Positions 833 to 10,172 of a stretch of DNA of 64,000 nucleotides are shown one piece after another. The notes beneath the pieces are model-generated. The model saw only the letters and a list, made by a program, of their open reading frames with translations, was not told where the DNA came from and ran no database searches. The position numbers and the translations under genes are program-made. The DNA comes from Thiosulfatimonas sediminis (GTDB lineage Bacteria > Pseudomonadota > Gammaproteobacteria > Thiomicrospirales > Thiomicrospiraceae), in the NCBI RefSeq assembly GCF_011398355.1, contig NZ_AP021889.1:248001-312000 (forward strand). Reading direction: 5' to 3'. Each line of letters opens with the position of its first letter. The first letter of the stretch is position 1.

Positions 833-3010
833 TTATTTTCTGGTTAAAGAATATTTCGAGGGATCGAGTACTTGAGTCTCCCCTAAATTAAAGTATGACA
901 TTTCTTGGCTTAAGGTTTCTGCTTGATGTCTTAAGTTTTCTGCGGATGCACTGGTTTCTTCAACCAGAGCGGCATTTTGTTGGGTCACACTGTCAATTTG
1001 GCTAATTGCGAGGTGAACTTGCTGCACGCCTTCGGCTTGTTCTTTTGAGGCTTGTGCTATTTGTGAAACCATATTGGTTACCTTCTCAATTGAACGATTG
1101 ATGTCATTCAACATTTCGCCTGACTCAGCCGCTAGGACTGAACCTTGGCTGACGCGGCCAACGGTTTCATCAATCAGTGTTTTGATGTCTTTTGCTGCTT
1201 CCGCTGACTTTTGTGCCAGACTGCGGACTTCTGAAGCCACGACTGCGAAACCTCGTCCGTGTTCGCCTGCTCTTGCTGCTTCAACGGCCGCATTTAATGC
1301 CAGTAGGTTTGTTTGGAAAGCGATGCTGTCGATGAGTGTCACAATATCAGCTATTTTATGACTGGATTCTTCGATGGAGGTCATCGCTTGAATAGTCTGC
1401 TGCATCACACTAACACCCTGTTCCACTTTGTGTTGCACATCTATCGAAACTCGATTGGCTTCTTGGGCGTTATTGCTGCTGCTTTGTACTTGCGAGTTCA
1501 TCTGCTCCATGGTGGCTGAGGTTTCTTCAAGGGCAGATGCTTGCTGCTGGACTCGATTGCTCAGCGTTAAGGCGCCTTGCGCCACTTCTCGTGCCGTGGT
1601 TTCAACCGAAGCGGAAACCTCCGAAGTCATGCTCACGACTTCTTTGGTTTTTTGGGACGAGAAGTTAATGGCATTTTTTAAATCGTGGACCTGTCCTTTA
1701 AATACACCAGCAGGTAATTCTTTGGTTAAATCGCCTTGTGCTTGTGCGCTCATCACATCACTGATTGATGTCATCACGCCGCCCAACGTGGTCATGGTGC
1801 TGTTAATTGTGTTTCCGAGCTCTTCTAAATCGCCAGGGAAAACGTCAATACGGTAGTTGAAGTCGCCTTCTTCGATGTGTTTCAAAACACGAGTAATGTC
1901 ATTGATGTTTTTGATTTGGTTGGTTTTATCCAGCCACTCAACCACATAACCGGCTTTTTGATTGTGGCGAATAATCGGGACGACTGTTAGTTCCAGAATC
2001 AAATCTGAAACCTTTAGATTTCCTTGCCAAGGTTCCATTAATGCTTGCACCATTTTACGTTGGTGAGCTGGATTTTTATGGAAGATATCCATATTGGAGC
2101 CCACGACAGTGTCTGCTCTGAAATTAGGAAGGGCTTGTTGCAAACTTTTTTCATTACGTTTGAACATCTCCGCCAGAGATTGGTTGATGCTTTTAATATT
2201 AAAATCGGCATCGGCTACCATCAGGTTTGTACTGGCGCTGTTCATTGCGGTGGTTAATACGGCTGCTTGCTTGGCAGAATCGTAATTTTTCGCTTCTGAC
2301 TCGGCCACTCTAGTACGAATCATATTCATCAAAAAGCCCAGTTCGCTTGTGTCGGTAACGGCCTCTTGCAGGTTGCCATTGGAAATTTTTTCGATGCCTT
2401 TTATGATTTCTTTAGAAGGGCGACCCGCCTTTACTATTGTCCAAGCAGTGACTCCCAAAGCGGCTATACCTAAAGCAGCGGTTGCTAACGTTAGGGCGGA
2501 GATTCCCGCTTCGAAGGTCATGGTAATGATGATCAAGAGGGCGATAAATAAGCTGATAAATGGGAACAAAAACTGCTTTAACTTAGAGTCTTGCTTTGTC
2601 CAAGGAAAGCTTGCCTTACCAGCATTAATGTCGGAATAAAGACGCGTTGCGAATTGCTTTTGCTGATCGGTTGCTGGATACCTTACGGATAGATAACCGG
2701 TGATATTGCCATTTTTGATGATGGGCGAAGCGTTTGCCATTACCCAGTAGTAATCGCCGTTTTTACGTTTATTTTTGACTAAACCCTGCCAAGGGCGGCC
2801 TGCCTGCAAGGTTTTCCAGAAATCTTCAAACGCTTCTTTAGGCATATCTGGATGACGGAGAATATTGTGCGGTTTTCCCGCCAATTCAGCATCACTGTAA
2901 CCGGAAGCTTCTCTAAAACCTTCGTTATAATCAAGGATATTACCGACTTTATCTGATGTCGATAAAATGACTAAATCGTTGGCCAGTAAATATTCGTTAC
3001 CAGAACTCAT
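833..3010 (-). CDS. Aer-like PAS methyl-accepting chemotaxis protein
   Basis: 725-residue energy/redox-taxis type receptor. An N-terminal PAS domain (residues ~1-115) carries the N-LRHPDMP segment and NGDYYWV motif typical of Aer-type PAS domains that bind FAD. Two adjacent hydrophobic segments at ~145-190 make a membrane hairpin without a periplasmic sensor. A HAMP-like stretch follows, then a second PAS-like region (~255-345), another HAMP-like region and the cytoplasmic signalling domain, whose hairpin tip contains [20 protein letters not shown]. The C-terminus lacks the NWETF-type CheR pentapeptide. GGAGG precedes the ATG. Likely senses redox state or oxygen from the cytoplasm and reports to CheA/CheW. 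Confidence 0.92.
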
Positions 3011-3036
3011 TGGGGGTGGCCTCCAAGTAGGGTTTT

Positions 3037-3285
3037 TCAGTTTAAAAGTTGAATGTATAACATGATGAACCTTTTCAATAGTGTCATATGGTTATTAATG
3101 CTTAAAAAACACAAAAAATTGCTTACTTCTTGTTTTAGCTTAATGTTTGGATTGACGCATAATAAGTTGAAATGTTCAGGCATAGATGCATTTAATTGAG
3201 CAAGATGTTGGTTGGCCGTCATGTCGAGACGTGAGAAAAAAATCCATTTTGTGCGCAAATCAATGTAGATTTGTTCTGTGCTCAT
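3037..3285 (-). CDS. Small hypothetical protein (82 aa)
   Basis: Open frame of 82 residues just upstream of, and codirectional with, the chemoreceptor (26-base gap). I recognise no domain. The composition is Leu/Asn/Ile rich with a hydrophobic C-terminus. No convincing Shine-Dalgarno precedes the ATG at 3285, so it may be either a real small gene sharing the chemoreceptor promoter or a chance frame in that gene's leader region. Confidence 0.3.
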
Positions 3286-3451
3286 TGGCTTATGAGTGTG
3301 AACGAGTCAATTTTGTCTAAACTTTCTGAGCGACAGGCCTTACGCGCGCGATAACAGCGCGCAGCTTTTTTAATTTAGCCAAATCAAGACTCTTGGTGAG
3401 TGCAAAGTAAAATAAAAGCAATCGTTTACAATCAATAGGAGAAACCTTTCT

Positions 3452-4735
3452 GTGAGCACCCTAGCACAGTTGCAATCCGGCGCTTTGCACGGCGCATCCC
3501 GTATTCAAATTTCTGACAACCTTACCGAATTTCCGGCCGAACTGTATCAACACGTCAATACGCTGGAAATCTTGGATCTGTCCAATAATCAGCTTTCCGA
3601 GCTGCCGCCAGATCTACATAGTTTTAAGAAGTTAAAGATAGTTTTCTGCTCGCTGAATCCGTTTAAAGAATTGCCGACAGTGCTTAGACAGTGCGAAAAC
3701 CTAGAGATGATTGGCTTTAAAAGTTGCCAGATTGAGACGGTTTCCGAGCAGGCTTTGCCACCGAAATTACGCTGGTTGATTCTCACAGATAACCACATTT
3801 CTCAACTGCCGGACTGTTTTGATAAAACGCCCAATCTGCAAAAATTGGCGTTGGCGTGTAATCAACTTACAGCATTGCCGGAGTCCTTGGCGCAGTGCTC
3901 GCGCTTAGAATTAATTCGTGTCTCTGCCAATCGGCTGGCTGAATTTCCCGTGGTGCTGACTAAAATGCCCAGTCTTGCGTGGTGTGCCTATGCCGGCAAT
4001 CCTTTCTGCGAAGTGGATGCTCAAGATTCTGTGGACGACGAATTGCTGCTTTCTGAACTGCAAGCGTTTGAATTAAAAGAACTCTTAGGCGAGGGCGCGT
4101 CTGGGCATATCTTTCTGGCCGAAGAACTGCATAGCGGCACCGAAAAAGCGGTCAAAATTTTTAAGGGCGATGTCACTAGTGACGGTTATCCCGAAGATGA
4201 AATGCGGGCTTGTATTACTGCGGGCAGTCACCCGAATTTAGTCAAAGTCGAAGCGAAAATTCATGCCGAAAAACTCGGGCTGGTGATGGAACTGATTCCG
4301 AGCCATTATCAAAATCTCGGCTTGCCGCCGAGCTTGCAATCCTGCACGCGTGACCAATTTGCCGAAGCGTTTCGACTATCGCAAACCATGCTGATTCACC
4401 TGTTACAACAAGCCATCTCAGCACTGAATCATCTACATCAACAAGGTTTAGTGCATGGGGATTTCTATGCGCACAATGTATTGATTGATGAAGCGGGGCA
4501 TCTTCTGCTCGGCGACTTTGGCGCGGCATCGCATATGGACTGCCTAACCGACCAACAAACCCAAGCCATGTTGCGCATCGAAAAACGCGCTCTAGCGCAC
4601 TTTATCGAAGACCTATGGCAACAAACCGATGTGGATTCGGAATGTGAACAGCAGTTTCACGAATGGCATCAACAACTGCTCAATGACCAAATTGAATTGG
4701 TCGAATTGCTGTTAGAAATGGATGAAATGAAATAA
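3452..4735 (+). CDS. Leucine-rich-repeat protein with Ser/Thr kinase-like domain
   Basis: 427 residues, GTG start preceded by AGGAGA. Residues ~20-185 form about seven LRR units with the L--LDLS-N-LSELP pattern. Residues ~205-427 are a eukaryotic-type kinase fold: glycine loop GEGASG at 213-218, ATP lysine K235 in AVKIF, HGD at 335-337 in place of HRD, N342 and DFG at 355-357. The main catalytic residues are therefore kept although the catalytic loop is atypical. Probably a cytosolic kinase whose LRR domain binds a protein partner; substrate unknown. No signal peptide is visible. It ends 9 bases from the convergent nucleotidyltransferase gene. Confidence 0.85.
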   Translation: MSTLAQLQSGALHGASRIQISDNLTEFPAELYQHVNTLEILDLSNNQLSELPPDLHSFKKLKIVFCSLNPFKELPTVLRQCENLEMIGFKSCQIETVSEQALPPKLRWLILTDNHISQLPDCFDKTPNLQKLALACNQLTALPESLAQCSRLELIRVSANRLAEFPVVLTKMPSLAWCAYAGNPFCEVDAQDSVDDELLLSELQAFELKELLGEGASGHIFLAEELHSGTEKAVKIFKGDVTSDGYPEDEMRACITAGSHPNLVKVEAKIHAEKLGLVMELIPSHYQNLGLPPSLQSCTRDQFAEAFRLSQTMLIHLLQQAISALNHLHQQGLVHGDFYAHNVLIDEAGHLLLGDFGAASHMDCLTDQQTQAMLRIEKRALAHFIEDLWQQTDVDSECEQQFHEWHQQLLNDQIELVELLLEMDEMK

Positions 4736-4743
4736 CCCTTCTG

Positions 4744-5034
4744 CTATGTAATTTGAATCAGATTGGTGCTGTTTTTAATGGAGTCGGATAGCTCGTCAAG
4801 ATTATGGACATCGACCCGAAACGGGAGTTCTGAAAACTCGAAAGCGTCGCGGATTTTAAAAAGCGTTACCAGTGGAAGAGGATTTCTTGCCTGAATCGCC
4901 AAGTCTAAATCAGAGTAATCGCGTGCAGTGCCTTTGGTACGCGAGCCGTAGGCAAAGACTTTACTTTCTTCCGGCAGAAAAGGCGTCAGTGTTTTAAGCA
5001 CCTCTTGTAATTCGGAATCCGATAACTGTAACAT
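4744..5034 (-). CDS. MNT-type nucleotidyltransferase, antitoxin of HEPN/MNT pair
   Basis: 96-residue minimal nucleotidyltransferase. The motif GS-x10-DxD is exact: G30, S31, D42 and D44 (YGSRTKGT...SDLDLA). In characterised HEPN/MNT systems the MNT protein is the antitoxin and can transfer AMP units to a tyrosine of the HEPN toxin, blocking its RNase activity. Its ATG shares one base with the stop codon of the upstream HEPN gene (TAATG), the usual translational coupling for such pairs. Assignment as a toxin-antitoxin pair is from family and arrangement. Confidence 0.85.
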   Translation of the reverse strand: MLQLSDSELQEVLKTLTPFLPEESKVFAYGSRTKGTARDYSDLDLAIQARNPLPLVTLFKIRDAFEFSELPFRVDVHNLDELSDSIKNSTNLIQIT

Positions 5035-5450
5035 TAATATTTAGCCTTTAAGCGCTGCAACAATTGTTCGGCTTGTGGTAAGAACGCTTTAGCAATCGCA
5101 AAGACTTCTAACGCCTTATGTTCGTGATAAGTGTGGGAGGTTTCATTACGAGCACGGTGGAATAGCATCCAGTCATCGACTGAAACAATTAATTGATACT
5201 CAGCGGCAAGCCTGAACAGTTCGCGCCGTGAAACGCCATCCACCTGAGATGCGCCCAAGTTCTCGCCAAGCCAACGTTTCATAAACTTCCAGCTTAATTC
5301 ATAAGTGAACTCGAAGTGCTGAATGACACCGGAAATCAAGGTACGGTATAAAGGTGTGTCCTCTTGCTCAATGGCAGACACAAGATGGAGGCTTTCATCT
5401 AAACGCGCAATGGCTTTTTCTAAGGATGAAAAATCAAGTTCGGTAGTCAT
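5034..5450 (-). CDS. HEPN-domain protein (HI0074-like), toxin of HEPN/MNT pair
   Basis: About 138 residues from the ATG at 5450 (5462 is also possible). All-alpha HEPN fold with the R-x4-6-H signature in [12 protein letters not shown], where the Arg and His form the RNase active site and the following Tyr matches the residue modified in the TSHTY type of HEPN. The open frame continues upstream to 5675, but that part is a frameshifted remnant of metH and not HEPN sequence, so I start the gene internally. A TACAAT at 5486-5491 (minus strand) may be its -10 element. Coupled to the MNT gene by a one-base overlap. Confidence 0.82.
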
Positions 5451-5563
5451 AGTGTTTGGCATTGCTTTGTTATCGGAAACTAGATTGCTATTGTACCCCT
5501 GGAGGCGTTTAAGAGGAATTTCTTGGTGAGCGGCTTTTTCTAGAGGTAAGGGGGTAAGGTTGC

Positions 5564-5667
5564 TTATTGAGCAAAATCTTTCAGGGTCGTAGCCCAGATT
5601 CGGCGCTAACCATTTTTCGGCTTCTTCGATTGACCAGCCTTTGCGGTGGACGTAGTCTTCGACTTGA
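5564..5667 (-). pseudogene. Remnant of a second metH 3' end
   Basis: About 104 bases aligning with the last ~34 codons of the intact metH (6453-6555). The translation keeps [17 protein letters not shown] and the following NLGYDPE almost unchanged. One extra A after the GAA codon (near 5579) shifts the frame; removing it restores PEDFAQ and a TAA stop at 5564-5566, exactly the C-terminus of the intact gene. DNA identity is roughly 80-85 percent by eye, so it is a diverged allele and not a fresh copy. Homology stops abruptly at CAAGTCGAAG on its upstream side, next to the zeta module. Confidence 0.9.
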
Positions 5668-5671
5668 ATTC

Positions 5672-5863
5672 TCAAGAAGAGGTTGTCGAAAATAGCCTTG
5701 GTACCACGACTTTCGCAGAGAAATTTAAGGTTTTGATTTCGCCATTTTCGAAAACGACAGCATATTGCCCCATTGCTTTTTTACGTTGCAAATCGCGTTT
5801 TACCGCATCTTGCATAACGGTTTGAGCATCAAATTTAGGGCGATAGTTTGTTACTTTTTCCAT
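5672..5863 (-). CDS. Small partner protein of zeta-like kinase (putative antitoxin)
   Basis: 63 residues, starting inside the zeta-like gene (13-base overlap), so the two are translationally coupled. The body (residues 1-50) is charged with a [14 protein letters not shown] segment, a pattern I associate with small proteins encoded beside zeta-like P-loop kinases. The last residues ([12 protein letters not shown]) run up to the junction with the metH remnant and may not be the native C-terminus. Antitoxin function is inferred only from pairing; it has no recognisable fold. Confidence 0.6.
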
Positions 5864-6432
5864 AATGATTTGACCTCCAAAAAATAAGAGAACAGTTCTT
5901 CGTTCTGCTCTTTGATAATGCCTTCATTAGAACGAAATACGGTTAGTGGATTTTCGCTTTCGTTGAGTAAGCATTCAGAATAATCAACTAATGGCATATA
6001 GTCATCATAATAGTGATTCAGGCTTTTTGGAAAGCGTCTTTTGATATCCTCTTGGGGAATATTGTGCCCGCCATGCGAAACGCGTTCAGCAACGCGTGAG
6101 ATAGAAAGTTCTGGCGACGGAAGCATTAAATAGAAAAGCGATACCTTCCAACCTTTTTCTTGTAGTTTTCGGATGCGCTTAATGTGGCTTCGGCCAGACA
6201 AAGTGGTTTCAAAAGCAAAGTTAATCTCTTCTTGTTCTAGAATGGCGAGCTGTTTCAAAAATTCTCTGGAGGCTTTGATATTTGCTTTATCCATTCCAAG
6301 GTGAGCATGTTCTTTGGCAATCTCATCCGCATTTATAAAATGCTCGATATAGCCTAAATCGATAAGATTCATGGCAAAAGTTGTCTTACCTGCTCCGTTA
6401 GGGCCTGCAATGATTATGACTTCTTTTTCCAT
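5851..6432 (-). CDS. Zeta-toxin-like P-loop kinase
   Basis: 193 residues with Walker A GPNGAGKT at 10-17, a FETTLSGR segment (~75-82), and the R-aERV-HGGH-IP-EDI-RRF-KS segment typical of the zeta-like ATPase family (COG4185). Zeta toxins phosphorylate UDP-N-acetylglucosamine and so poison cell-wall synthesis; whether this branch does the same is not known. It follows metH by 20 bases and has its own AGGAG before the ATG. Downstream small gene overlaps. It sits between the intact metH end and the metH remnant, which marks it as a later arrival. Confidence 0.8.
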   Translation of the reverse strand: MEKEVIIIAGPNGAGKTTFAMNLIDLGYIEHFINADEIAKEHAHLGMDKANIKASREFLKQLAILEQEEINFAFETTLSGRSHIKRIRKLQEKGWKVSLFYLMLPSPELSISRVAERVSHGGHNIPQEDIKRRFPKSLNHYYDDYMPLVDYSECLLNESENPLTVFRSNEGIIKEQNEELFSYFLEVKSLWKK

Positions 6433-6452
6433 GAAATCTCCTATGAAGTTAT

Positions 6453-9400
6453 TTACTGCGCAAAGTCTTCAGGATCGTAACCCAAATTCGGCGCTAGCCA
6501 TTTTTCGGCTTCTTGGATGCTCCATTTTTTGCGTTTGGCGTAGTCTTCGACTTGGTCGCGACCGACCGAGCCGACACCGAAGTATTTGGATTCTGGATGC
6601 GAGAAGTAGATGCCGGAAACCGCCGCAGTTGGGAACATCGCATAGCTGGAAGTTAGCTCAAGACCGATGCTTTGTGATGGTTTGAGCAGTTCCCAAATGG
6701 TGCCTTTTTCGGTGTGTTCTGGGCAGGCCGGATAACCTGGTGCCGGGCGAATCCCTTGGTATTTTTCGCGAATCAAGGCTTCATTATCCAAGTCTTCGTC
6801 TGGCGCATAGCCCCATTCGGTTTTACGCACCATTTCATGCAGGGTTTCAGCAAAGGCTTCGGCAAAACGGTCGGCTAAGGCTTTGAGCATGATTGCATCA
6901 TAGTCATTGTGTGCCGCTTCAAATTCCGCCGCCTTTTCATCACAGCCGATACCACCGGACACCGCGAATAGACCAACATAGTCAGCAATGCCCGAAGCTT
7001 CACCATTAATGACTTTTGGCGCAATATAATCACTCAGACACTGGTTATAACCGCCGCGTTTTTTCTCCGCCTGTTGACGTAGATTATGCAGAACCGTCAG
7101 CACCTGCGTGCGTGACTCATCGGTGTAAACTTCAATGTCATCGCCAACGGCATTGGCCGGGTAGAAGCCATAAGTCGCTTTGGCGGTCAGCCATTTTTCG
7201 GCAATGATTTTTTCCAACATGGCTTGCGCATCAGCGAACACGCGCTTAGCTTCTTCACCGACAACCTTGTCTTCGAGAATACGCGGATAGAGACCGTGCA
7301 AATCCCATGATTGGAAGAACGGCGACCAGTCGAAACGTGCGACAAGTTTTTCCAGCGGGAAATCTTCTAGCACGCGTAAACCAAGGAAAGTCGGTTTTGG
7401 TGGCTGATAGCCGTTCCAGTCGATTTCGATGCGGTTTTCGCGCGCCTTGTTGATCGGGATACGCTTGACCTCTTTAGCGCGCGCTTTACGCTCTTCGCGT
7501 ACTTGCTCGTATTCGGCGCGAATTTTCGCGGCAAAATCGACTTTGAGGTCGTTGGAAATCAAGCTTTGCGCCACGCCCACCGCGCGCGAGGCATCCTTAA
7601 CGTACACTACAGGATGGTCGTATTGCGGTTCGATTTTCACCGCTGTATGTGCTTTGGAGGTGGTCGCGCCGCCGATTAATAAAGGTAGGTTCATGCCGCG
7701 CTCTTTCATCAGTTTGGCGACATTGACCATCTCTTCCAACGATGGCGTAATCAGACCGGAAAGACCGATGACGTTTGCGCCTTGTTCGATGGCAGTATCC
7801 AGGATTTTTTCGGCTGGCACCATGACGCCTAGGTCGATCACCTCGAAGTTGTTACACTGCAGTACCACGCCGACAATGTTTTTGCCGATGTCGTGCACAT
7901 CGCCTTTGACTGTAGCCATGACGATTTTGCCGTTGGCTTGTCCAACCGTTTTTGCAGCCAGAATGTATGGGTCGAGGTGCGCCACAGCGCGTTTCATAAC
8001 ACGCGCTGATTTCACCACTTGTGGCAGGAACATTTTGCCTGAACCGAATAGGTCGCCGACCACGTTCATGCCGTCCATCAGCGGCCCTTCGATAACCAAT
8101 AGTCCTGAACCCAGTTTTTGATAGGCTTCTTCGGTATCGTCTTCGATGTAGTCGGTAATCCCTTTGACTAGTGCGTGTTCTAGGCGTTTTTCAACCGGCG
8201 CATCGCGCCATGCGGTATCAGCCACTTTACTGGCGGCGGTGCCGTCGCCACGGAATTCGGCAGCGACTTCCAGCAATCGTTCGCCGGCGTCTGGGTCTTT
8301 ATTCAAGATAACGTCTTCAACGGCCAAGCGCAGTTTTTCCGGCAGATCATCGTAAATCGCCATCTGCCCAGCATTAACGATCCCCATGTCCATGCCTTCT
8401 TTGATGGCATAGTACAAGAACACCGAGTGAATCGCTTCTCGCACCGGGTTGTTGCCGCGGAACGAGAAAGATACATTGGAGACCCCGCCGGAAATCTTGG
8501 CGTGCGGCAGGTTGGCTTTAATCCACGTCACCGCGTTGATAAAGTCCAAACCGTAATTATTGTGTTCTTCGATACCGGTCGCCACCGCGAAGATGTTCGG
8601 GTCGAAAATAATGTCTTGCGGCAGGAAGCCGACTTTTTCGGTCAACACTTTATAAGAGCGTTCGCAGATTTCGATTTTACGAGCCAAGGTATCTGCTTGG
8701 CCGTCTTCGTCAAAGGCCATGATAATCGCGGCTGCGCCGTATTGTTTCACTTTACGGGCGTGTGCGATAAAGGCTTCTTCCCCTTCTTTGAGCGAGATGG
8801 AGTTGACCACACCTTTACCTTGAATGCATTTCAAACCCGCTTCGATGACCTCCCATTTTGAGGAGTCAATCATGATCGGTACACGCGATGCTTCCGGCTC
8901 GGAGGCCAGCAGGTTCAAGAAACGCACCATGCAAGCCTTGGCGTCCAGCATCCCTTCGTCCATGTTGACGTCGATAATCTGCGCGCCGTCTTGCACTTGT
9001 TTGACTGCAATCTCAATCGCTTCTTCGTAGTTTTCTTCAATAATCAGACGTTTAAAAAGTGCTGAACCAGTGACGTTATTGCGTTCGCCAACATTCACAA
9101 ATAAGGTTTTTTCGTCAATGTTCATCGGTTCCAAACCGGATAGGCGGCAGGCGGGTTTGATGTTTGGTAGCGCGCGACGCGGATGTTTTTGTGCCGCTTG
9201 CGCCATCGCTTCAACATGATCCGGCGTGGTGCCACAACAGCCGCCGATAATATTGATCCAGCCGCGCTCTGCCCAAATCGCGATCTCAGCCGCCATCTGT
9301 TCTGGGGTTTCGTCGTATTCGCCAAATTCGTTCGGTAAGCCGGCATTCGGGTGAATTGATACATAGGTTTCGCACACGCGGCTTAACTCTTGTACATACG

Positions 9401-10172
9401 GACGAAGCTCTTCTGGCCCTAAGGCACAGTTCAAACCGACGGATAGTGGCTCGGCGTGGGCGACAGCATTATAGAAGGCTTCGGTGGTTTGACCGGAAAG
9501 GGTGCGTCCGGAAGCATCCGTTATCGTCCCACTCAACATAATCGGCACTTCATAGCCAACTTCGATTTCCACTTCTTTAACCGCGAAAATGGCGGCTTTG
9601 GCATTGAGGGTATCGAATACAGTTTCGATCAGAATGGTGTCCACGCCGCCTTCTAAAAGCGCATGAGTCGCTTGTTTGTAGGCAATGACCAATTCATCAA
9701 ATGAGGTGTTGCGAAAACCCGGGTCATTGACGTCCGGCGAGATCGACGCGGTGCGGTTTGTCGGCCCTAGAACACCGGCGACAAAACGCGGTTTGCCGTC
9801 TTCGGATTCGGCAATCTCGCAGGCTTCGCGCGCCACCTTGGCGCAAGCGATATTCAGCTCGGTCACCACTGATTGCATATCGTAATCGGCTTGCGCAATG
9901 GTGGTGGCGTTGAAAGAGTTGGTCTCGATAATATCGGCGCCTTGGCGCAAAAACGCTAAGTGAATATCACGGATCACTTCCGGTTTGGTCATCGCCAGAA
10001 TGTCGTTATTGCCTTTGATATCCATGTGATAGTCGGCAAAACGCTCGCCACGGAAATCCTCTTCGGTCAAGTTCAGACCTTGAATCATGGTACCCATAGC
10101 GCCGTCTAAAACGACAACTCTTTCGGCAAGTAGTGACTTTAATTGTGAAATACGATCCGCGCGTGAACTCAT
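6453..10172 (-). CDS. metH: Cobalamin-dependent methionine synthase
   Basis: 1239 residues, full length (E. coli is 1227). Order: homocysteine-binding domain with zinc ligands in GLNCALG and GGCCGTT (~1-330); pterin-binding domain for methyltetrahydrofolate (~350-615); cobalamin cap and binding domains with GDVHDIGKN, whose His ligates cobalt (~650-890); S-adenosylmethionine reactivation domain with [12 protein letters not shown] (~910-1239). It makes methionine from homocysteine in the cytoplasm. The last ~34 codons occur again, degraded, 0.9 kb downstream, so its 3' end may have been supplied by an incoming element. I see no cobalamin riboswitch in the 281-base gap upstream. Confidence 0.97.

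What the first reader, a model, noticed from the sequence alone, without database searches (positions are those of the whole stretch)
5564..6555. A zeta-like module wedged between two copies of the metH 3' end
The intact metH ends at 6453. A ~104-base second copy of its last ~34 codons lies at 5564-5667, with a single-base insertion that breaks the frame and a TAA in the matching place. The two copies differ at roughly 15-20 percent of bases, so this is not a recent tandem duplication. The simplest reading is that an element carrying a zeta-like kinase, a small partner and a foreign metH 3' end recombined into metH, replacing the resident end and leaving it as debris. This mimics how integrative elements restore their target gene, but no integrase is present, so homologous exchange (for example after transformation) is also possible.
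Basis: partly seen in the sequence, partly recalled or inferred. Interest (0 to 1): 0.75.

Follow-up and report, generated by a model that had tools for sequence, protein, structure and literature searches.

The report
Defence genes nested behind metH ends
A small toxin-like gene pair sits between a working methionine-synthase gene and a broken extra copy of that gene's end, and some related bacteria carry other genes at the same spot, in part with the same cut point and with no recombinase gene nearby.

Summary
Window 5564-5666 (minus strand) is a 103-nt copy of the last 102 nt of metH: 83% identical, one inserted base, TAA in place. A zeta-like P-loop kinase and a small conserved partner lie between the two ends; a HEPN-MNT pair follows the copy.

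It recurs. Of 54 metH 3' regions from the family, five carry metH-end copies downstream, all in metH's orientation. In three (G000, G031, G059; two genera, unrelated cargo of 0.79, 0.80 and 2.87 kb) the copy begins 102-107 nt before the end of metH. In the other two it begins elsewhere. Of 426 other gene ends tested as a control, none has such a detached end fragment.

The genes behind metH differ between species; in five of nine close relatives they are toxin-antitoxin-like or candidate defence genes. No tyrosine-integrase gene was found within 33 kb of the metH 3' end on its contig in 22 genomes. Some metH ends are mosaic, so homologous exchange acts here too.

Best reading: integrase-less cassettes, each restoring the metH end, inserted at a preferred point. 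The recombinase is unknown, and which copy is foreign is unresolved. New variant of a known kind; small sample.

The parts
6453..10172 (-). metH, intact; its last 102 nt (6453-6554) are the restored 3' end
   Evidence: ORF of 1239 aa; five methionine-synthase Pfam domains
5851..6432 (-). zeta-like P-loop kinase, 193 aa, starting 21 nt behind the metH stop
   Evidence: Pfam Zeta_toxin 40.8 bits against a cut-off of 22.3, AAA_33 40.8 against 27
5672..5863 (-). small partner, 63 aa, overlapping the kinase gene by 13 nt
   Evidence: no Pfam or NCBIfam family; residues 1-49 (or most of them) are found beside 9 of 17 other zeta-like loci of the family; the last 14 residues are not shared
5564..5666 (-). 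displaced copy of the metH 3' end, out of frame through one inserted base, TAA kept
   Evidence: E 3.5e-22; 2.7e-26 with a profile of 52 metH ends, itself included
5034..5447 (-). HEPN-type gene behind the displaced end (start codon at 5447 chosen by me; the longest ORF runs through the copy to 5675)
   Evidence: Pfam NTase_sub_bind 2.7e-35; NCBIfam HI0074 family over its cut-off
4744..5034 (-). MNT-type nucleotidyltransferase gene
   Evidence: Pfam Polbeta and NTP_transf_2 over cut-off; NCBIfam MntA 36.4 bits, below its cut-off of 60
3452..4735 (+). leucine-rich-repeat protein kinase gene; end of the variable stretch towards metH
   Evidence: Pfam; same gene, same orientation, at a like place in G013 and G026

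Best explanation
The 3' end of metH is a landing spot for very small gene cassettes in this family. A cassette carries its own version of the last ~34 codons of metH. It joins the chromosome at a preferred point inside metH, at codons ...Gly-Arg-Asp|Gln-Val-Glu-Asp-Tyr. The incoming end keeps metH whole (the activation domain needs it; established knowledge), and the former end is pushed behind the cargo, where it decays. In the window the latest cargo is the zeta-like kinase and its partner; behind the displaced end sits an earlier tenant, HEPN-MNT. Shown: two ends, cargo between them, recurrence, a shared break point in three genomes, no tyrosine integrase nearby, mosaic metH ends. Inferred: that a site-specific recombinase acting from elsewhere in the genome, or since lost, made the join; and that recombination between the repeated ends later swaps or deletes cargo.
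For: Copies start at profile positions 138 (G000), 135 (G059) and 134 (G031) of 240, although their cargo is unrelated; chance of such agreement in a simple simulation 0.0013 for 3 of 3 and 0.010 for 3 of 5. All five genomes have the copies downstream and in metH's orientation. Control: 4 of 52 metH ends but none of 426 other gene ends show a detached end fragment within 8 kb. Nearest tyrosine integrase to the metH 3' end: 163 kb in the window's genome, 33.6 kb the closest on one contig among 21 others. Behind metH the first genes differ in the nine nearest species. HEPN-MNT of G000 and G020, both at this spot, are 60% alike although their metH bodies are 83% alike, so they look like separate arrivals.
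Against: Only three coinciding break points; G008 (position 175) and the array of G033 (196-199) do not share them. No recombinase, no shared motif seen by eye at the cargo ends, and no integrase-bearing metH island found in this family. In a draw of 370 genomes of the class, three genomes outside the family had two matches, all on separate contigs. G059 is a draft whose contig breaks inside the metH end, so its intact metH was not seen.
Confidence: 0.48

Rival explanations
1. Homologous recombination alone. Linear DNA from a relative pairs with the metH body on one side and is joined illegitimately on the other (homology-facilitated illegitimate recombination), or a circle carrying a metH end integrates by one crossover. 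The equal left edges are coincidence or inheritance.
For: metH ends are mosaic: third codon positions of G014 and G031 differ at 2 of 33 in the end but 50 of 123 in the body (p 0.0001 among 36 pairs); G000 and G021 at 5 of 33 against 50 of 123 (p 0.0044, not significant after correction for 36 pairs). Integrase-free hotspots with recombining core flanks are described (PMC5635113, passages), as is one-sided joining (PMC3240628, abstract start in listing).
Against: Does not by itself explain why three unrelated cargoes share the break point to within 5 nt, nor why no other tested gene end shows such debris.
Confidence: 0.3
2. Decayed genomic islands: each cassette is the leftover of a larger element that used a metH-targeting integrase and has lost it (a CIME-like remnant).
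For: Regenerated and displaced gene ends are the island signature (PMC4383910, abstract and passages). The closest zeta-like relative, in G008, starts 4 nt behind an integrase gene.
Against: No integrase near metH in any of 22 genomes. The cargo genes end close to the copy in G000 and G031, which suggests small complete units rather than scars. Serine recombinases were not searched.
Confidence: 0.13
3. The metH end was duplicated in place in an ancestor and cargo later entered between the copies.
For: Two ends of one genome held as sisters are not formally rejected (AU p 0.083). G033 shows that the metH end can be amplified in tandem.
Against: That tree is 20 log units worse; each end is closer to other species' ends than to the other.
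Confidence: 0.07
4. Chance similarity or assembly error.
For: None found.
Against: E 3.5e-22 in a one-contig genome; recurrence in four other genomes; control.
Confidence: 0.02

Closest known systems
Integrative genomic islands that regenerate their target gene (tRNA/tmRNA islands, and islands in the ends of protein genes such as trmE)
   Same: Intact target plus displaced 3' fragment on the proper side and in the proper orientation, cargo between (PMC4383910, abstract and passages).
   Different: No integrase, and in G000 and G031 under 1 kb. Islander's filters, as quoted, reject candidates without an integrase or under 2 kb and look only at tRNA/tmRNA genes, so such units would escape it.
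CIMEs and tandem accretion of ICE relatives
   Same: Integrase-less cargo between two attachment-like repeats; possible stacking (recalled; one search gave listings only).
   Different: No integrase-bearing relative with the same ends was found.
Insertion with long target duplication (restriction-modification genes; Nobusato et al. 2000)
   Same: A selfish or defence-like gene pair flanked by a long direct repeat of the target, no recombinase (passages of PMC3031569; the 2000 paper itself not read).
   Different: The two ends here are 83% alike and nearest to other species, and the left edge recurs; in that work duplications are described as long and variable.
Integrase-free hotspots and core defence hotspots
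   Same: Turnover of defence-type genes next to a core gene; recombination at the flank (PMC5635113 passages; PMC10250203 passages).
   Different: Those reports concern flanking core genes; in the passages I saw there is no restored and displaced gene end.
Zeta toxins (PF06414)
   Same: Family score over the curated cut-off.
   Different: Partner is 63 aa without a known family; toxicity unknown; only one PDB chain matched by sequence, weakly, over 16 residues.

Membership tests
Target-regenerating integrative genomic island | Intact target gene and displaced 3' fragment flank the cargo, same orientation | tested here: met
Target-regenerating integrative genomic island | Integrase gene inside the element | tested here: not met
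   only two ORFs of 60 aa or more called between the ends; nearest PF00589 match 163 kb away; serine recombinases not searched
Target-regenerating integrative genomic island | Fixed crossover point in the target | tested here: inconclusive
   3 of 5 genomes share it within 5 nt, 2 do not
Target-regenerating integrative genomic island | Excised circular form | not testable with these tools
   needs PCR or reads
CIME | A related ICE or IME with integrase uses the same attachment site | tested here: not met
   no PF00589 match within 33 kb of the metH 3' end on its contig in 22 genomes
Insertion with long target duplication | Long direct repeat of target flanks the insert | tested here: met
   103 nt
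Insertion with long target duplication | Repeat is a duplicate of the resident target | tested here: inconclusive
   83% alike, each nearer to other species; sister tree not rejected
Zeta toxin family | PF06414 over cut-off | tested here: met
   40.8 against 22.3 bits
Zeta toxin family | Toxicity neutralised by the partner | not testable with these tools
   needs expression in a laboratory strain
HEPN-MNT pair (HI0074/HI0073; type VII toxin-antitoxin) | HEPN partner and adjacent MNT nucleotidyltransferase | tested here: met
   PF08780, TIGR01987, PF18765 and PF01909 over cut-off
HEPN-MNT pair (HI0074/HI0073; type VII toxin-antitoxin) | NCBIfam MntA antitoxin equivalog | tested here: not met
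   36.4 bits, cut-off 60

The most novel reading that the evidence does not exclude
metH-end cassettes are a class of integrase-less mobile units in which the regenerated end of a housekeeping gene serves as the attachment site: one or two toxin-antitoxin or defence genes plus ~104 nt of metH, moved by a recombinase supplied from elsewhere, stacking and replacing each other at one spot much as integron cassettes do.
Probability: 0.2. Interest if true: 0.85.

Novelty: new variant of a known kind. Interest (0 to 1): 0.57.

Why it matters
How toxin-antitoxin and defence genes reach integrase-free hotspots is an open question. A hotspot where the insertion leaves the displaced gene end as a dated scar, with a repeating cut point, gives a place where the joining mechanism can be read from sequence and tested. 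Island finders that demand an integrase or a tRNA gene would miss units this small.

Tried and rejected
Stand-alone metH ends on plasmids and phages: 47 and 11 records matched the end peptide (40 and 11 rows seen). Rows with annotation name metH or methionine synthase; unannotated rows were not inspected one by one, so absence is not shown. Viral contigs: one locus, matching a longer metH piece at its edge; not pursued.

Wider spread: in 370 genomes drawn from the class, 238 matched the end peptide and 4 had two matches, one of them the window's genome. In the other three the two matches lie on different contigs; one is a pair of long metH frames, two are weak second matches. Not pursued. The order holds the same 62 genomes as the family.

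Chance coincidence of the copy was rejected by the control. In one search three further matches arose among non-metH ends: an 80-nt match in G014 that does not reach the gene end, and a reciprocal pair in G020 between two ORFs of over 150 codons each; I do not count these as detached ends.

A shared arm motif at the cargo ends of G000, G031 and G059: none seen by eye. A GGTC..GACC palindrome lies beside the break point in the metH of G000, G013, G020, G024, G031 and G060 but not of G021 and G032 (8 examined); in G013 it also occurs elsewhere. Kept as a lead only.

Structure prediction was not run; the question was about the insertion.

Full report
What is there. metH ends at 6453 on the minus strand. 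Behind it, reading on the minus strand, come a zeta-like kinase (6432-5851), a 63-aa partner (5863-5672), a 103-nt copy of the metH end (5666-5564), a HEPN gene (5447-5034), an MNT gene (5034-4744) and, convergent, a leucine-rich-repeat kinase gene (3452-4735). The copy is 83% identical to the window's own metH end, carries one inserted base and keeps the TAA. The longest ORF for HEPN runs on into the copy (5034-5675), but the HEPN family match lies in the part read from 5447.

Recurrence. The family, which is also the whole order held, has 62 genomes; 56 match the metH-end peptide and three of these match it twice: G000, G031, G059. I took the DNA behind metH from 53 genomes with a locatable metH stop, plus the G059 contig: 54 regions. 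Downstream length is at least 3 kb in 48 of the 53 and 0.9-2.6 kb in the other five. G006 was fetched but has no stop in view; G076 was not fetched because its contig ends there. A profile of 52 metH ends finds detached copies in five regions: G000, G059, G031, G008 and, as five ~45-nt pieces in a tandem array, G033. Weaker matches in the same search concern the first 60 positions of the profile or reach E 0.05 or worse, and I do not count them. All counted copies lie downstream and run in metH's orientation.

The break point. Copies begin at profile position 138 in G000, 135 in G059 and 134 in G031, out of 240, which is 102-107 nt before the end. The cargo is unrelated: kinase and partner; a methyltransferase; a TPR protein and an AAA_15 ATPase. 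In G008 (position 175) and G033 (196-199) the edge differs. A simple simulation gives 0.0013 for three of three within 5 nt and 0.010 for three of five. The edges of G031, whose copy is only 74% identical, and of G059 are uncertain by a few bases.

Control. Of 478 ends of ORFs of at least 150 codons in these regions and the window, 52 are metH ends and 426 are others. Detached end copies within 8 kb were found for metH in four genomes and for none of the others; three non-metH matches that I set aside are described under Tried and rejected.

The spot turns over. In the nine close species (G000, G003, G013, G014, G020, G021, G024, G026, G031) the first genes behind metH fall into different clusters except that G013 and G020 both have HEPN-MNT, and these two are only 36% alike in protein. 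Annotation of the first genes: kinase with partner (G000); HEPN-MNT (G013, G020); RelA_SpoT domain, PADLOC PDC-S33 at 8.7e-104 (G014); HipA_C and HIRAN, PADLOC PDC-M03A and B (G024); methyltransferase (G031); lipocalin (G021); no family found (G026; G003, where one of two ORFs was scanned). So five of nine are toxin-antitoxin-like or candidate defence genes. Further out, G018 has HEC-01A and B, G010 and G033 have HEPN-MNT and G009 a remnant, and G059 an OLD/GajA-like ATPase. I did not annotate the first genes of all 54 regions; several (for example G005, G022, G027) show no such gene in the gene-cluster table. The PADLOC names are candidates, not tested functions.

Separate arrivals. HEPN-MNT of G000 and G020 is 60.2% identical while their metH bodies are 83.3%; G020 and G033, of different genera, are 78.4% against 72.2%. 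The G020-G033 match is continuous over 794 nt and begins 36 nt inside the metH end, in G033 inside one of its extra ends. That fits a module that travels with a piece of metH end, although for G020 and G010 (73.3% against 73.2%) inheritance is as good an explanation.

Mosaic ends. Third codon positions: G014 and G031 differ at 2 of 33 in the last 33 codons and 50 of 123 upstream (p 0.0001, 36 pairs tested); G000 and G021 at 5 of 33 against 50 of 123 (p 0.0044). The metH-end tree groups G000, G013 and G021 with good support and puts the debris outside that group. Holding debris and present end of G000 together costs 20 log units, AU p 0.083. Hence foreign origin of one of the ends is likely but not proven, and I cannot say which.

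No recombinase. The window's genome has eight PF00589 matches, the nearest 163 kb from the metH 3' end. Among 21 further genomes the closest on the metH contig is 33.6 kb from the metH 3' end, in G033. Some of these assemblies are drafts, and serine recombinases were not searched. The closest zeta-like relative, in G008 (62% identical), starts 4 nt behind an integrase gene with arm-binding, middle and catalytic domains, on another contig than metH.

The cargo. The kinase scores over the Pfam cut-off for Zeta_toxin and AAA_33. The partner has no named family, but relatives of it lie next to 9 of 17 other zeta-like loci in the family, so the two look like a unit. Toxin and antitoxin roles are inference.

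Mechanism. Shown: restored and displaced ends, recurrence, a break point shared by three of five, no tyrosine integrase nearby, mosaic ends. Inferred: cassettes joined at a preferred point by an enzyme acting from elsewhere or since lost, then exchanged or lost by recombination between the repeated ends. Homologous recombination alone remains the main rival.

Literature. The island signature and Islander's filters come from the abstract and passages of PMC4383910; integrase-free hotspots from passages of PMC5635113; core defence hotspots from passages of PMC10250203; long target duplications from passages of PMC3031569; one-sided joining from the start of an abstract, PMC3240628, in a listing. 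Eight literature searches ran; no listed title describes cassettes at the metH end. That is not proof that none is in print.

Noticed in passing
L045 (G033) 1098-2600: Tandem array behind metH: ~140-bp units, each with ~45 nt of metH end and an inverted repeat (GGCTAAAGCCTGCGCCCC ... GGGGCGAAGGCTTTAGCC), with HEPN-MNT sitting between two units.
   Followed up: partly
L103 (G008:C32) 222-2174: An integrase gene ends 4 nt before the closest zeta-like relative and its partner; whether this element targets a gene end was not determined because the contig begins there.
   Followed up: partly
L042 (G018) 1202-2973: Behind metH: an AAA_21 ATPase and a DUF4276 protein matching PADLOC HEC-01A and HEC-01B at 1.7e-158 and 3.4e-86.
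   Followed up: no
L109 (G029:C50) 2252-5083: Two zeta-like pieces ~1.9 kb apart, one broken into two frames with an intact partner beside what looks like dnaX, one truncated; the gene name is from memory.
   Followed up: no
window 5564-5666 and L102 (G059) copy: Both displaced ends carry a single inserted base within a few nt of each other, near the end of the copy; may be coincidence.
   Followed up: no
L032 (G014) and L036 (G031), metH 3' ends: The last ~65 nt of metH are identical in two species whose metH bodies are about 85% alike, yet the genes behind differ.
   Followed up: partly
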